Shown here piece after piece: positions 31,974 to 53,513 of a stretch of 64,000 nt of DNA (position 1 is the stretch's first letter; every line of letters starts with the position of its first letter). Origin of the DNA: Acidilutibacter cellobiosedens. GTDB lineage: Bacteria; Bacillota; Clostridia; Tissierellales; Acidilutibacteraceae. The stretch covers positions 1,168,673-1,232,672 of the forward strand of contig NZ_CP035282.1 in the NCBI RefSeq assembly GCF_004103715.1, read 5' to 3'. The notes under the pieces were generated by a model. The model was not told the DNA's origin. It worked only from the letters and a program-made list of their open reading frames with translations, and did not search any database. The translations under genes were made by a program, and so were the position numbers.

Positions 31974-32066
31974 GATAGTGTAAAGTAGCCTATGAAAAAC
32001 AGAGTCAAAGAAATTAGGCTCAAATGAACCTAGAAAATTGCAAAATATATTTAAACTTGGTGCGCC

Positions 32067-32212
32067 GCCACCCTTGACAGCATGCCAAAACAATGCTGCG
32101 TAATATTTACCGACGGCGAAGAAACTCAAGAACAGAGAATTTATTGTGCCGTCTTAACAATATTGTAGCATTGTATTTGTCCTGCCATCAAGGGCAAGCC
32201 CTAAAGGGTGGC
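32067..32212 (-). ncRNA. Candidate structured RNA in the IS 3' region (copy 1)
   Basis: A 146-nt imperfect inverted repeat lies on the transposase strand downstream of its stop. The outer pair is GCCACCCTT/AAGGGTGGC and the inner pair GACGGC/GCCGTC, around a loop of about 30 nt. One arm carries an extra mini-hairpin (AGGGC-TT-GCCCT). The same 146-nt structure occurs in copy 2 at 53192-53337. Whether it is transcribed is unknown. Confidence 0.45.
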
Positions 32213-32252
32213 TGGATTACCTCTGGCTCTGAAATCTAAGAACAGATAGAAA

Positions 32253-33695
32253 TCAAGATGCAGGATTTTCTTGCATATTGAGAATAACCTGTTGTCCTAG
32301 AAAAATCAAAAGTTGCCATTTGCCAGGCATATTGCCAGCATTCTTAAGCATTTCAACTTCATTTAAAGGACGACTCCTTCTATACAGTTCATGAGGACGT
32401 AGGAAGTTGTAGTAGGCAACCCAAAGATTTACACCATAATAAGCACCATCATCAGTACCATAACCACATGTAACACGATAAGAGGCTTTAAAAGTGCGGT
32501 TAAGACGTTCAATCTTTTGTTTAAAGGGGCGATACTCCTTGGATACAGTATCATCGTTAGTCAGACCAATAACTTGTGTAACATCAAAGTCCCAATCCTT
32601 CTCAATCTTAAATTGTTGAGCAGCCAAAGGATAAGCACTGTAACCATCAGATATAAATTTTAAAGCTTTACCAGGGAATTCTTTAAATTTATCAAAAGCC
32701 ATTCTCATGGTAAGTATACAAGGTCCGACATCACGACTATTAGAGACTTGATAACCAAGAATAGAGCGGGAAACAGTGTCCATGATGAGCCAAACATAAC
32801 CTTTGAGCCCCTTAATCTTGATATAGGTTTCATCAGCAGCTAGGTTATTTGAAGGATTGTAATCAAAGGCATCCACAAAGGGTTTGATAATAACTGAGGC
32901 AGTTCTAGCATAGTTGGCAACCATAGTGTGTGAAATATTGATATTATGAATTTCACGCATAGCTTCAGCAGTTTTGCGAAGGGAAAGACCAAGATTAACA
33001 TGATAAGTTAAACAAAGCCCCATAATATGAGCATTGTTCTTTCTGTATTTAAAACTTGTAGCCCAAGAAGGTAGCTCGTTCAAATCCATAGAAAAGAAAT
33101 CTAGCGTAAATTCACGATAGATGTAATGAAGCTTGTATTTGTGCTTCTCACTAGGATCTAAGTCCTTAGGAAGTTGTTTTAAATTGCTTTTGTAATACGA
33201 ACAATTTTTATTGACACATTTATGCACAATAAAGTGTTTACGGTCTTTTTTAGCAACTAAAGCATGTCCACAATAAGGGCAAATAAGAACTAAAGGAGAA
33301 GTTGCTTGTTCACCCGCAATAAAAGTTTGACCACAGACTTTGCATTGGTATTGGCCTTTGCCACCATTGTTATCATAAATGTATTGATGAGGGGCACCAC
33401 ATAAAGGGCATACAATCTCTTCGGGTATAGTTTTGCCATTACGACGCTGAACTGGCTTAATAGGCTTATTGTATTTCCAAAGATAGTATTCGAGCAGAAA
33501 ACTGTAATCCTGCTTAAAGAACTTTTTGATTATTGGGAGCTTATCTATTTTAAATTTCTGATAAGAAGGACTTTTAGAATCATCAAAAGCCCATTGTTTA
33601 AGAGGAATATATTTTGCGATAAATAGGGTTAATTCATAAATTTGATTAAGTAAGTATTGATTATATACAAGTAAATAGGTTATAATTTGAGACAT
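32253..33695 (-). CDS. IS6-like DDE transposase with N-terminal zinc ribbons (copy 1)
   Basis: This protein of about 480 residues has two cysteine pairs near the N-terminus ('CPLCGAPHQYIY', 'CKVCGQTF') and a further 'CPYCGHALV'. A helix-turn-helix and a DDE core follow: 'AADETYIKIKGLKGYVWLIMD' (first Asp), 'FISDGYSAYP' (second Asp), and a late Glu in 'IERLNRTFKAS'. The core resembles IS6/IS240 transposases but the zinc-binding front is unusual for the best-known members. ATG 33695 follows AAAGGTGA. It is about 93 percent similar by eye to the copy at 51709, so the two are not recent duplicates of each other. The frame is intact. Confidence 0.85.
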   Translation of the reverse strand: MSQIITYLLVYNQYLLNQIYELTLFIAKYIPLKQWAFDDSKSPSYQKFKIDKLPIIKKFFKQDYSFLLEYYLWKYNKPIKPVQRRNGKTIPEEIVCPLCGAPHQYIYDNNGGKGQYQCKVCGQTFIAGEQATSPLVLICPYCGHALVAKKDRKHFIVHKCVNKNCSYYKSNLKQLPKDLDPSEKHKYKLHYIYREFTLDFFSMDLNELPSWATSFKYRKNNAHIMGLCLTYHVNLGLSLRKTAEAMREIHNINISHTMVANYARTASVIIKPFVDAFDYNPSNNLAADETYIKIKGLKGYVWLIMDTVSRSILGYQVSNSRDVGPCILTMRMAFDKFKEFPGKALKFISDGYSAYPLAAQQFKIEKDWDFDVTQVIGLTNDDTVSKEYRPFKQKIERLNRTFKASYRVTCGYGTDDGAYYGVNLWVAYYNFLRPHELYRRSRPLNEVEMLKNAGNMPGKWQLLIFLGQQVILNMQENPAS

Positions 33696-33870
33696 AACAA
33701 TGATCACCTTTTCTATAAATTTTGTGTGTAGTAACTCAAATTATAACAGAAAATAGGGGGTCATTGTTTTTATTTTATAAAAAACTCTGTAACCCTTGAT
33801 AATATAAGGCTTTAATAAAAAAAGAGGGGTGTCTTATTGACACTACCTATTTTTTTAGGAGGGTTAGAAT

Positions 33871-34401
33871 ATGAAAAAATTTACTACAAGAGATTTAATT
33901 TTATCCGGTATATTGTTGGCATTGGGAATTATAATTCCGATGATATTCCATGCTGTGGGAGGTATGGCGGGTTCTGTGCTTTTACCTATGCATATACCGG
34001 TTTTAATAGGAGGATTTATGTTGCCGCCATTATTCGCTTTTTTATTGGGACTGATTACGCCTTTGCTGAATAGCATTTTCACGGGTATGCCGCCCATGTT
34101 TCCGATGGCCTTAATTATGATGTTTGAATTAGGAACTTATGGATTGGCAGCGGCTTTGGCCGTTAGAAAATTAAGACTTTCTTCCATACCGTCCCTTATT
34201 ATTTCTATGATTTCAGGAAGGGTGATAGCAGGGATAATTGTATTTATACTGTCTTCGTTCTTCGGAGTGCAGATGAATGCCTTTACTTACGTTAAAGGAG
34301 CTGTAGTTACGGGACTTCCGGGGATAGTCATTCAATTGATACTTATACCTTCTTTGATGCAGGTTTTGGGGAAAAATTATAAAGTAGGTACAAATAATTA
34401 A
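33871..34401 (+). CDS. ECF transporter S component
   Basis: This 176-residue protein with about five to six hydrophobic helices begins 'MKKFTTRDLILSGILLALGIIIPM', a start typical of ECF S components. 'GSVLLPMHIPVLIGGFMLPP' and 'GLITPLLNSIFTGMPPMFPMAL' carry the family pattern. These proteins bind a vitamin or its precursor and dock to a shared EcfAAT module, not present here; the ligand is not evident. Its RBS AGGAGGG lies one base after the IS target duplication, so the IS now separates it from everything upstream. Confidence 0.8.
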   Translation: MKKFTTRDLILSGILLALGIIIPMIFHAVGGMAGSVLLPMHIPVLIGGFMLPPLFAFLLGLITPLLNSIFTGMPPMFPMALIMMFELGTYGLAAALAVRKLRLSSIPSLIISMISGRVIAGIIVFILSSFFGVQMNAFTYVKGAVVTGLPGIVIQLILIPSLMQVLGKNYKVGTNN

Positions 34402-50935: not shown

Positions 50936-51529
50936 TCAATCTTCAACTTCGATTTTTAATCCTCCGGCTTTAGTTTTTTTGTAGTAAATCATCTTTACAT
51001 CTATTTTTTCTGAAAGCCGATCCATAGTCTTATATGTATCAGGCTTTATAGAATACGGAATAGAGCCGACATATCCATCGATTCCAATTGCTTCTTCATA
51101 TGGCGTAGCTAATCTATATTTTTGCTCTTTTTTTTCTGCTAAAAAAGCTAAAATTGCCTGTTGAACATAGAGACCATTATATGTTTTATAAATTATTAAA
51201 TCTTTTACCCATTTTCTAATTAAATTCTTATCAATTAAAGTTATTGCTTGTTTGAGATTTTCAACTTGGTCATATATTTTGTCAGTTGCGTTATTTATAA
51301 CATTGGGATATTTTTCAAGATACCACTTCTCCCAATTTTCTATGGTGATTGTTTTTGCTGATTTTTGAAATTCTGGGAATAGTTCAGACAACTGACCGAC
51401 TACTTTGGGACGAGTTCCCTGAGCGTTTTGATTGGCTAAGTTTATAAGTTGTGATGTATATTTTGGAAAATGGACATTTTCACTTCTATTGTATGCTTGA
51501 ATGTTTTCTTTGTTAATTGTATATTTCAT
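50936..51529 (-). CDS. MjaI-family type II restriction endonuclease (CTAG)
   Basis: This protein of about 197 residues resembles the MjaI family ('SQLINLANQNAQGTRPKVVGQLSELFPEF', 'VQQAILAFLAEKKEQKYRLATPYEEAIGIDGYVG'). MjaI cleaves CTAG. ATG 51529 follows AAGGGGA; the track's upstream extension lacks a site. It converges with the methyltransferase gene, ending 38 bp from it. An IS6-like element lies 26 bp upstream of its start codon, between the RBS and any native -35 region, so its expression may be changed or lost. The reading frame itself is intact. Confidence 0.8.
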   Translation of the reverse strand: MKYTINKENIQAYNRSENVHFPKYTSQLINLANQNAQGTRPKVVGQLSELFPEFQKSAKTITIENWEKWYLEKYPNVINNATDKIYDQVENLKQAITLIDKNLIRKWVKDLIIYKTYNGLYVQQAILAFLAEKKEQKYRLATPYEEAIGIDGYVGSIPYSIKPDTYKTMDRLSEKIDVKMIYYKKTKAGGLKIEVED

Positions 51530-51708
51530 TTTAGTATCCCCTTTTTTATAATAAGGTAGTGTCAATAAGACACCCCTCTTTTTTTATTAAAGCCTTATAT
51601 TATCAAGGGTTACAGAGTTTTTATAAAATAAAAAACAATGACCCCCCATTTTCTGCTATAATTTGAGTTATCACGCACTAAATTTAAATAGAAAGGTTGG
51701 TCATTGTT

Positions 51709-53151
51709 ATGTCTCAAATTATAACTTATTTACTACTATATAATCAATACTTACTTAATCGAATTTATGAATTAACTTTATTTATCGCAAAATATATTCC
51801 TCTTAAACAGTGGACTTTCGATGATTCTAAAAGTTCTTATTATCAGAAATTTAAAATTGATAAGCTCCCTATCATCAAAAAATTTATCAAACAAGATTAT
51901 AAATTCCTACTTGAATACTATATCTGGAAATATGGTAAGCCTGTCAGGCCTGTTCAACGCCGTAATGGTAAAACCATTCCTGAGGATACTGTCTGCCCTC
52001 TCTGTGGTGCTCCTCATCAATACATTTACGATAATAATGGTGGTAAAGGCCAATATCAATGTAAAGTCTGTGGTCAAACTTTTATTACAGGTAAACAAGC
52101 AACTTCTCCTTTGGTTCTTATTTGCCCTTATTGCGGACATGCTTTAGTTGCTAAAAAAGATCGTAAACACTTTATTGTGCATAAATGTGTCAATAAGAAT
52201 TGTTCTTACTACAAGAACAATTTAAACCTGCTTCCCAAAGACTCATATCCTAGTGAGAAGTATAAATACAAGCTCCATTACATCTATCGTGAATTTACGC
52301 TGGATTTCTTTTCTATGGATTTACATCAGCTTCCTTCATGGGCTACTAGTTTTAAGTTTAGAAAGAACAATGCTCATATTATGGGACTTTGTCTTACTTA
52401 CCATGTTAATCTTGGTTTATCTCTTCGTAAAACTGCTGAAGCTATGCGTGAAATCCATAATATTAATATATCTCACACTATGGTTGCAAGCTATGCAAGA
52501 ACTGCTGCTGTATTAATTAAGCCTTTTGTAGATACATTCGATTACAGTCCTTCAAATAACTTAGCTGCTGATGAAACCTATATCAAAATTAAAGGACTCA
52601 AAGGTTATGTTTGGCTCATTATGGATACTGTTTCTCGCTCTATTCTTGGTTATCAAGTCTCTAAAAGTCGTGACGTCGGCCCTTGTATACTTACCATGAG
52701 AATGGCTTTTGATAAATTTAGAAAATTCCCCGGTAAAGCTTTAAAATTTATATCTGATGGTTACAGTGCCTATCCTTTAGCTGCTCAACAGTTTAAAATT
52801 GAAAAGGACTGGGACTTTAATGTTACTCAAGTTATTGGTTTGACTAATGATGATGCTGTAACTAAAAAGTATCGTCCCTTTAAACAAAAGACTGAACGCC
52901 TTAACCGTACTCTCAAAGCTTCTTATCGTGTTACCTGCGGTTATGGTACCGATGATGGTGCTTATTATGGTGTAAACCTTTGGGTTGCTTACTATAACTT
53001 CCTGCGTCCTCATGAACTTTATAGTTGGAAACGTCCTTTAAATGAGGTTGATATGCTTAAGAATGCCGGCAATATGCCCGGTAAATGGCAGCTTCTTATC
53101 TTTTTAGGACAGCAAGTCATTCTTAATATGCAAGAAAATCCTGCATCTTGA
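51709..53151 (+). CDS. IS6-like DDE transposase with N-terminal zinc ribbons (copy 2)
   Basis: About 480 residues, same organisation as the copy at 32253-33695. Zinc-ribbon cysteines are at 'CPLCGAPHQYIY', 'CKVCGQTF' and 'CPYCGHALV'. The DDE core has 'AADETYIKIKGLKGYVWLIMD', 'FISDGYSAYP' and a Glu in 'TERLNRTLKAS'. The frame is complete. ATG 51709 follows AAAGGTTGG, slightly weaker than the AAAGGTGA of copy 1. Amino-acid differences are scattered rather than clustered, as expected for two functional lineages of the same element. Confidence 0.85.
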   Translation: MSQIITYLLLYNQYLLNRIYELTLFIAKYIPLKQWTFDDSKSSYYQKFKIDKLPIIKKFIKQDYKFLLEYYIWKYGKPVRPVQRRNGKTIPEDTVCPLCGAPHQYIYDNNGGKGQYQCKVCGQTFITGKQATSPLVLICPYCGHALVAKKDRKHFIVHKCVNKNCSYYKNNLNLLPKDSYPSEKYKYKLHYIYREFTLDFFSMDLHQLPSWATSFKFRKNNAHIMGLCLTYHVNLGLSLRKTAEAMREIHNINISHTMVASYARTAAVLIKPFVDTFDYSPSNNLAADETYIKIKGLKGYVWLIMDTVSRSILGYQVSKSRDVGPCILTMRMAFDKFRKFPGKALKFISDGYSAYPLAAQQFKIEKDWDFNVTQVIGLTNDDAVTKKYRPFKQKTERLNRTLKASYRVTCGYGTDDGAYYGVNLWVAYYNFLRPHELYSWKRPLNEVDMLKNAGNMPGKWQLLIFLGQQVILNMQENPAS

Positions 53152-53191
53152 TTTCTATCTGTTCTTAGATTTCAGAGCCTGAGGTAACCCA

Positions 53192-53337
53192 GCCACCCTT
53201 TAGGGCTTGCCCTTGATAGTAGGACAAATACAATGCTACAATACTGTAAAGACGGCACGAAAAATTATCTGTTCTTGAGTTTCTTCGCCGTCGGTAAATA
53301 TTGCGCAGCATTGTTTTGGCATACTGTCAAGGGTGGC
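53192..53337 (+). ncRNA. Candidate structured RNA in the IS 3' region (copy 2)
   Basis: The left arm (53192-53256) and right arm (53287-53337) pair along most of their length from GCCACCCTT/AAGGGTGGC to GACGGC/GCCGTC. An extra mini-hairpin (AGGGC-TT-GCCCT) lies in the left arm. The loop repeats a sequence found just after the transposase stop (TATCTGTTCTT). Size and position equal those in copy 1. The remaining DNA up to 53431 shows no ORF. Confidence 0.45.
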
Positions 53338-53513
53338 GGTGACTGCCATGAAAATATATTTTTGTAATTTTCCAGGTTCTATTCAGCCTGATTTTTTTAT
53401 TCTTGTTTTTCATAGGCTACTTTACACTATCTATAATAAAGTTATTTACTTGATATGATACTATTTACATTAAATATAAATTGAAATAATATTATCGTAT
53501 GGGCAAAGATTTA

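What the first reader, a model, noticed from the sequence alone, without database searches (positions are those of the whole stretch)
53192..53337. Conserved 146-nt hairpin after the transposase in both IS6-like copies
Both copies carry the same long imperfect inverted repeat with an extra mini-hairpin in one arm and a 30-nt loop that repeats sequence from just after the transposase stop. The size is identical although the two copies have diverged. Elements of other families carry guide or bridge RNAs in such non-coding ends; none is known to me for this type. It may instead be an anti-readthrough or translation-control structure.
Basis: partly seen in the sequence, partly recalled or inferred. 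Interest (0 to 1): 0.55.

Follow-up and report, generated by a model that had tools for sequence, protein, structure and literature searches.

The report
Foldable promoter hairpin inside insertion sequences
A jumping gene carries, just behind its transposase gene, a DNA hairpin that, when single-stranded, could fold into what looks like a ready-made start site for copying the strand, resembling devices known from plasmids that travel between bacteria.

Summary
The hairpin is real (53192-53337; RNA fold z -5.7) and conserved; it covaries strongly in 25 relatives. A guide RNA is unlikely. Its 5' arm holds a sigma-70 promoter placed so that -35 and spacer are paired and the helix opens at -11, the geometry of an opened promoter. 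Best reading (inferred, not shown): on single-stranded DNA it folds into a promoter from which host RNA polymerase primes the second strand, as in single-strand origins and Frpo. Relatives carry other modules at the same place; one shares a core with about 1,750 plasmid records, lying opposite the early-entry genes in 9 of 10 conjugative records inspected. Such modules also follow some IS3 and ISNCY transposases. One multicopy relative lacks a hairpin, so it is accessory. Separately, this IS clade inserts at ribosome-binding sites: a start codon lies 23-25 nt from the left end in 32 of 33 insertions read.

The parts
51555..53431 (+). insertion sequence copy B, TSD TATAATAA on both sides (51547-51554, 53432-53439)
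   Evidence: perfect 8-bp repeat and ends GGTAGTGT / ACACTATC
31974..33847 (-). insertion sequence copy A, TSD AAAAAATA
51697..53151 (+). transposase, 484 aa, DDE_Tnp_IS240 with N-terminal zinc-ribbon-like part (copy A: 32253-33707 -)
53156..53187 (+). R1: direct repeat beside the tnp stop, just 5' of the hairpin base
   Evidence: concerted with R2
53192..53337 (+). the hairpin (copy A: 32067-32212 -)
   Evidence: covariation
53202..53213 (+). mini-hairpin in the 5' arm (MFE fold; other pairings are possible)
   Evidence: relatives have a mini-hairpin there with other sequence (by eye)
53213..53242 (+). promoter in the 5' arm: -35 TTGATA 53213-53218, 18 nt, extended -10 TACAAT 53237-53242
   Evidence: geometry
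53251..53292 (+). apical hairpin GACGGC/GCCGTC
53266..53297 (+). R2: copy of R1 in the loop, ending in GGTAA
53373..53390 (+). intrinsic terminator CAGGTTCTATTCAGCCTG + T run; copy A has one at 32032-32015 (-)

Best explanation
The hairpin is a folded single-stranded-DNA promoter, that is, a priming site. Shown by sequence: when the tnp-sense strand is single-stranded it can fold so that the -35 box and spacer are double-stranded and the -10 box opens from -11. Inferred: host RNA polymerase recognises this fold and copies the loop as a short RNA; the RNA primes synthesis of the complementary strand from near the 3' end of the element leftwards across the whole IS. Inferred, weaker: the promoter faces into a closed loop, so the primer made on R2 is released and re-anneals to its identical copy R1 just outside the hairpin base, which would explain why R1 and R2 stay identical. 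It is an accessory module, swapped for other modules or lost in relatives. When the IS is single-stranded (conjugative entry of its host replicon, or a strand displaced or circularised during transposition) is not determined.
For: Covariation: 16 pairs with changes on both sides (shuffled mean 8.3), 66 such cells (17.5), score 0.240 (0.119; slid versions at most 0.083), 25 sequences. In 40 tails scanned, the best promoter had -35 paired at 95% and spacer at 88% of positions; -11 unpaired in 35 of 40, -12 paired in 32, both in 28; mean DNA pairing probability 0.91 at -13, 0.74 at -12, 0.21 at -11; the -10 is extended (TG) in 35 of 40. Cousins with Tnp only 33-42% identical keep the design with unrelated spacer sequence (L125, L126, L133, L138). 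R1/R2: of 50 elements, 43 have a matching block of score 9 or more, 27 different words; over the 11 positions before the block end own identity is 0.77-1.0 against 0.25-0.66 in cross-comparison of 26 words. The R word does not depend on one transposase: hairpins behind IS3-family transposases have their own matched pair (L166, L169). A module at the same place in relatives (type 3) has a core that matches 1,754 plasmid records, 1,377 typed conjugative (blastn at E 0.01 with 101 nt, mostly 60-80% identity); in 9 of 10 typed-conjugative records inspected it lies on the strand opposite the leading-region genes. Published: Frpo folds as ssDNA into -35/-10 with complementary regions and is needed for early expression (passages of PMC9849209, PMC11541004); F and many Gram-positive RCR plasmids have origins that fold into promoters whose transcript primes the second strand (passages of PMC4595007).
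Against: No transcription or priming data. The promoter could act in double-stranded DNA. Both strands fold about equally well. Only 18 G.T against 8 A.C among 350 spacer-helix cells, weak evidence for which strand matters. My promoter-geometry scan did not clearly recover the published Frpo1/Frpo2 promoters, so the rule is not validated on a proven case. Model R1 found no convincing match in the conjugative loci searched and also missed L138 and L092, which I call cousins by plan only. The plasmid core resembles another module (type 3), not this hairpin, and I saw no clear -10 at 15-19 nt in type 3. One typed-conjugative record (CP066363) has mixed strands and three other records were ambiguous or uninformative. 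Type 3p elements have a 5'-arm promoter but no R1/R2 block; L092 and L126 do not exceed shuffles and L125 and L138 barely do: the primer-hop is not general. A multicopy relative without the hairpin exists (G356; weakly structured G281).
Confidence: 0.55

Rival explanations
1. A separate small RNA gene: the promoter works in double-stranded DNA, RNA starts about 53249 and ends at the terminator behind 53390; the sRNA (or the structured 3' UTR of the tnp mRNA) regulates transposase expression or binds transposase.
For: Good promoter and, about 150 nt downstream on the same strand, a terminator, both found in copy A too; strong RNA fold.
Against: A ds promoter does not need a covarying palindrome from -35 to -12. 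No antisense partner conserved across lineages in the element. R words vary freely while R1=R2 holds, also next to an unrelated transposase family, so a co-evolving protein or RNA partner is not needed. No Rfam family reached its gathering score in the window; 20 relative loci gave only a tRNA.
Confidence: 0.2
2. Structural 3' UTR: the hairpin protects the tnp mRNA or stops readthrough or antisense transcription.
For: Sits between the stop codon and the right end in the type 1 elements whose right end was found.
Against: Does not explain the conserved -35/-10 or R1=R2; a separate terminator is present in the window copies.
Confidence: 0.1
3. A palindrome shaped mainly by mutation: template switching between R1 and R2 and between the arms homogenises repeats and arms without selection for function.
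For: Repeated strand switching could produce concerted direct repeats beside a palindrome; it would explain why the words are arbitrary.
Against: The -35, the -10 and the GCC of the repeat stay in place in lineages with strongly diverged transposases; in relatives the module is often replaced by another structured module rather than simply lost (by eye).
Confidence: 0.1
4. Guide or bridge RNA that selects target or donor ends, as in IS110/IS1111.
For: Position in a non-coding end; bipartite matches (R2 to R1, 3' arm to 5' arm) superficially resemble two guide segments.
Against: No clear match to ends or flanks; identical tails of a type 3 relative at four unrelated targets; target preference kept without the hairpin; DDE element with 8-bp TSD.
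Confidence: 0.03

Closest known systems
Frpo / ssi single-stranded promoters of F and ColIb-P9
   Same: Folded single strand rebuilding -35/-10; a start for primer and transcript; type 3 relatives have a core that also occurs in plasmid leading regions on the strand opposite the genes
   Different: Sits behind a transposase gene, not upstream of early genes; promoter of the window hairpin faces the loop, not out of the hairpin; no R1/R2 repeat is described in the passages that I read
Single-strand origins of rolling-circle plasmids and ICEs (ssoA, ssoU, sso1 of ICEBs1)
   Same: Imperfect palindromes active only as ssDNA; RNA-polymerase priming of the second strand (PMC4595007, passages)
   Different: No blastn match of the window tail at E 1 in 72,556 plasmid records; ssoA signature boxes (recalled) not tested
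IS6 family, clade VIII of Harmer and Hall / clade i of Varani (ISHahy6, ISHco2, ISTet2)
   Same: DDE_Tnp_IS240 core, zinc-ribbon and further N-terminal part, about 450-480 aa, 8-bp TSD (PMC6807381 and PMC7986276, passages)
   Different: 'hairpin' and 'non-coding' do not occur in the first paper and my terms returned no passage on a DNA hairpin in the second; our protein is below the curated IS6 cut-off
Bridge RNA / seekRNA of IS110/IS1111 (recalled)
   Same: Structured sequence in a non-coding IS end
   Different: No guide matches; DDE transposase; target choice independent of it

Membership tests
Frpo-type single-stranded promoter | single strand folds so that -35 and -10 are rebuilt from complementary regions | tested here: met
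   (prediction from sequence only; in the window copy -11 is unpaired but -10 to -7 pair further up)
Frpo-type single-stranded promoter | sequence similarity to F Frpo | tested here: not met
   only a 15.9-bit, E 0.4 hit in the F segment, not at Frpo1/2
Frpo-type single-stranded promoter | lies in a conjugative leading region upstream of early genes | tested here: not met
   the window copies lie inside an IS on the single 3.7-Mb contig of the genome
Frpo-type single-stranded promoter | RNA polymerase starts on ssDNA and not on dsDNA | not testable with these tools
   needs in vitro transcription
Single-strand origin (sso) of rolling-circle plasmids | converts ssDNA to dsDNA in vivo | not testable with these tools
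   needs the classic sso assay
Single-strand origin (sso) of rolling-circle plasmids | RSB / CS-6 type conserved boxes (recalled) | not tested
   -
IS6 family | IS240-type DDE domain and 8-bp TSD | tested here: met
IS6 family | curated NCBIfam IS6 cut-off | tested here: not met
   72.1 and 72.4 bits against 125; Harmer and Hall propose to split the long members off
Bridge RNA / seekRNA | loop segments matching target and donor ends | tested here: not met
   best were 7-nt matches, 23 and 67 of 500 shuffles as good (window copy B only)
Known RNA family (Rfam 15) | match above gathering score | tested here: not met
   0 in the window; 20 of the relative loci scanned gave only a tRNA; permissive scan of 53100-53500 gave three weak unrelated hits

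The most novel reading that the evidence does not exclude
Several families of DDE insertion sequences (IS6-like clade VIII, IS3, ISNCY) carry interchangeable single-strand initiation cassettes behind their transposase gene, shared in part with conjugative plasmids. In the window type, RNA polymerase makes a primer inside a closed loop and a direct repeat outside the hairpin lets the primer hop out, a priming design not known to me. This would imply that these IS regularly pass through a single-stranded phase that they manage themselves.
Probability: 0.3. Interest if true: 0.85.

Novelty: new variant of a known kind. Interest (0 to 1): 0.68.

Why it matters
Single-stranded promoters and origins are known from plasmids, phages and ICEs. 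I saw none reported in a DDE insertion sequence in the listings of six searches (open-access PMC papers only; some searches listed only the top 20 of 702, 12 of 232 and 10 of 13). If correct, it makes the question whether IS6-like elements pass through a single-stranded stage directly testable, links IS modules with plasmid establishment modules, and gives a natural set of covarying ssDNA promoters for studying promoter opening. The R1/R2 rule offers a clean compensatory-mutation experiment. The ribosome-binding-site targeting noticed on the way is independently testable.

Tried and rejected
Guide RNA: rejected for lack of matches and because target choice is independent of the hairpin. Antisense control of tnp: in 13 of the 25 elements whose R2 was found, R1 or R2 has an exact antisense match of 9-10 nt somewhere in the element, but the only recurrent one (TCAAGAACA, 7 close relatives, inside tnp) is not shared across lineages. 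Rfam: nothing. Viral contigs and phages: no relative of the transposase found. Type 2 module and window tail against plasmids: no match. Small peptides coded by R1/R2: considered while reading, dropped because the frames are not kept (no call). 6S-like RNA mimic: considered; a sequence-specific -35/-10 argues for DNA (no call).

Rows left out: alignment A2 uses 25 type 1 hairpins; near-duplicates (L052, L054-L057, L060-L062, L064, L093, L101, L012, L037) and the six distant ones (L092, L125, L126, L133, L137, L138) were left out. The 40 tails still include near-duplicates (for example L051, L060, L086, L106; L067 and L115 appear to be the same contig), so counts are not independent. The scan favours consensus-like boxes. 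In L016 the pairing pattern of the best hit does not fit the arm; in L119 the promoter is in the 3' arm. In one search the word is taken from the best block, which in L156 lies elsewhere. The sorting of tails into types 1, 2, 3, 3p, 4 and none was done by eye.

Full report
OBSERVATION. The 146-nt hairpin at 53192-53337 is real and far beyond chance (RNA z -5.74; DNA z -5.14). It lies between the transposase stop (53151) and the right end (53431) of a 1,877-bp insertion sequence with perfect 8-bp target duplications. A second copy (31974-33847, - strand) is about 89% identical. The own genome holds 9 near-full-length matches to the tail and 2 fragments. The transposase (484 aa) has an IS240-type DDE domain and scores below the curated IS6 cut-off. 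By size, zinc-ribbon part and 8-bp TSD it fits the long clostridial group, clade VIII of Harmer and Hall / clade i of Varani (passages of PMC6807381 and PMC7986276).

RELATIVES. A genome scan gave 68 relatives; 25 of 100 near genomes had a match at E 0.001 and 23 of 391 genomes of the class at E 1e-60. Tails between stop and right end were compared by eye. Many are strongly structured, but in different ways. Type 1 is the window hairpin (27 tails used, including near-duplicates). Type 3 is about 250 nt with a conserved internal loop; type 3p looks like a circular permutation of it; type 2 and type 4 are further designs. L114/L131 (G356, at least 4 copies, two tails read) and L019/L020 have no strong structure, and L044/L059/L111 little. 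So the module is accessory.

COVARIATION. On 25 type 1 hairpins, 16 of 39 pairs show changes on both sides against 8.3 in shuffles; 66 cells against 17.5; covariation score 0.240 against 0.119, 0 of 500 shuffles as high; slid structures reach at most 0.083. RNAalifold on its own finds 33 pairs, 14 with compensatory changes. The structure was taken from one member (L051), so the percentage paired leans towards it. Sequences are related, so the shuffle counts are not probabilities.

THE PROMOTER. The most constant positions inside the otherwise variable 5' arm are those of a sigma-70 promoter. In 40 tails the best-scoring promoter has -35 TTGATG in 19, TTGATA in 7, TTGACA in 6, spacer 17 in 27 (15-19 in the rest), -10 TACAAT in 18, TAAAAT in 7 and similar, with T1, A2 and T6 in all (the scan favours such boxes), and TG before the -10 in 35. 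In 6 tails tested, 0 to 7 of 200 shuffles scored as high. Folding as DNA, -35 and spacer are paired and the helix ends at about -12: mean pairing probability 0.91 (-13), 0.74 (-12), 0.21 (-11). This is the fork geometry at which RNA polymerase opens DNA (general knowledge). A double-stranded promoter needs no palindrome and an RNA helix needs no -35/-10, so the combination points to a promoter formed by folded single-stranded DNA (inference).

THE REPEAT. R1 (53156-53187) and R2 (53266-53297) align without gaps. Across lineages the shared word changes (CTGTTCTT, TCTGTTTTT, CTTGTTTTT, GTTCCT, GCTTGCTTT, CATATTTTT, TTTTTGTCC and others) but changes in both copies together. Of 50 elements, 43 have a block of score 9 or more; 27 words; over the last 11 block positions own identity is 0.77-1.0 against 0.25-0.66 in cross-comparison of 26 words (the block end is defined by the match, which inflates the last positions). 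The spacing from the word to GCC is equal in R1 and R2 in 7 of 8 pairs that I counted by eye (8 to 11 nt; not in L116). On the folded strand the template side of the loop would be read from about GGTAA (53293-53297) back to the word, so the primer's 3' end would be complementary to the shared word, which R1 offers again just outside the hairpin base. I therefore propose a primer hop from R2 to R1. Against generality: L092 and L126 do not beat shuffles (121 and 227 of 300) and L125 and L138 barely do (17 and 19 of 300), and type 3p has no such repeat.

MODULES ELSEWHERE. A type 3 core (ACCGTGGAATA..TATGCCGCGAAAG between stems of varying sequence) matches 1,754 plasmid records at E 0.01, 1,377 typed conjugative (short, mostly 60-80% identical matches, not all inspected). 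In F it lies at 54.00-54.06 kb on the - strand, distinct from Frpo1 and Frpo2, and in ColIb-P9 at 23.7 kb on the - strand upstream of a methylase gene. In 9 of 10 typed-conjugative records inspected it is on the strand opposite the leading-region genes (F, NC_005327, CP156904, CP152372, NC_009350, CP026717, CP013415, CP016446, ColIb-P9); the tenth, CP066363, is mixed. CP095281 (mobilizable) is ambiguous, its nearest genes being two IS transposases on the same strand, and two mini-plasmids are uninformative. Published passages place such genes so that the transferred strand is their template (PMC11541004) and describe Frpo (ssi) upstream of a plasmid methylase gene (PMC7736820). A covariance model of type 1 hit 22 of 391 class genomes at E 1e-4. 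Two hits follow IS3-family transposases directly (L166, L169; 326 and 318 bits against a cut-off of 160); others are dispersed, for example 7 in G314. The type 3 core pattern hit 6 of 391 genomes, reversed control 0 in the rows shown. In G218 all ten copies lie about 138 nt behind a 453-aa ORF, checked in one (L182) to be an ISNCY-family transposase; in L183 it lies 10 nt behind an IS3-family transposase.

WHAT IS SHOWN AND WHAT IS INFERRED. Shown: structure, covariation, promoter boxes in the arm, their geometry in prediction, R1=R2, modular exchange, a core shared with plasmids, absence in a multicopy relative. Inferred: that the fold forms in vivo on ssDNA, that RNA polymerase uses it, that the product is a primer, and the hop. 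Weak points: both strands fold; G.T versus A.C counts are 18 to 8 of 350; the geometry scan did not clearly recover the published Frpo promoters; type 3 has no clear -10; the model missed the cousins L138 and L092.

A SECOND RESULT, NOT ASKED FOR. These IS land at ribosome-binding sites. In 33 distinct insertions with perfect TSDs a start codon heading an ORF of 60 codons or more lies within 40 nt of the left end in 28 (18 at exactly 23 nt, 5 at 24, 2 at 25; 3 nearer, where the script chose an earlier start), but in only 4 of 33 at the right end. Reading the flanks by eye, 32 of 33 have an ATG at 23-25 nt behind a Shine-Dalgarno-like stretch (exception L132). A second set of 20 flanks gave 17 with such an ORF at 23-24 nt, two more (L222, L225) with the motif at 23 but a short or stopped frame, and one without (L215); L230 repeats L046. 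Random points in the window meet start plus ORF at 23-25 nt in 2.6%, with a Shine-Dalgarno-like stretch in 0.35%; intergenic points in 0.9%. The relative without the hairpin (G356) and the weakly structured one (G281) do the same, so the hairpin is not what finds the target. My one paper search on this listed a single paper, on an IS6100 transposon, which I did not read.

PAPERS. Seen as passages found by term: PMC9849209, PMC11541004, PMC4595007, PMC7736820, PMC6807381, PMC7986276, PMC8708921. Others only as search listings. IS110 bridge RNAs, seekRNA and sso boxes are recalled.

CHECK.

Noticed in passing
left flanks of the IS: window 51527-51554 (gene on - strand, ATG 25 nt from the IS) and 33848-33873 (gene 33871-34401 +): The IS clade inserts just upstream of Shine-Dalgarno sequences: ATG at 23-25 nt from the left end in 32 of 33 insertions read by eye (25 of 33 in the strict ORF test), and 17 to 19 of 20 in a second set, independent of the hairpin.
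   Followed up: yes
51635-51711 (+): Inverted repeat ACAATGACC ... GGTCATTGT around the tnp start with a TGCTATAAT box between the arms: looks like the usual device that silences tnp when transcription reads in from outside while leaving its own transcript free.
   Followed up: no
plasmids, for example L139:13987-14082 (-), L141:3988-4078, L197:23721-23774 (-): A hairpin core ACCGTGGAATA..TATGCCGCGAAAG matched in about 1,750 plasmid records, mostly opposite the leading-region genes where inspected, distinct from Frpo1/2 of F; also in an Actinobacteria plasmid (L148).
   Followed up: partly
L182, L188-L196 (G218): Ten copies of the same core, each about 138 nt behind a 453-aa ORF; the one checked is an ISNCY-family transposase.
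   Followed up: partly
L166, L169: The window-type hairpin directly behind IS3-family transposases, with its own matched R1/R2 word.
   Followed up: partly
L168, L178, L199-L204 (G314): Seven dispersed repeats carrying the hairpin amid other short repeats; whether any belongs to a transposase gene was not checked for all.
   Followed up: partly
L107: An element whose hairpin is cut from the -35 region to just before the TATCTGCAGTTTTCAAGG stretch: a natural deletion.
   Followed up: no
window 31974-53431: The two IS copies lie as inverted repeats around about 17.7 kb, so the segment could be inverted or moved.
   Followed up: no
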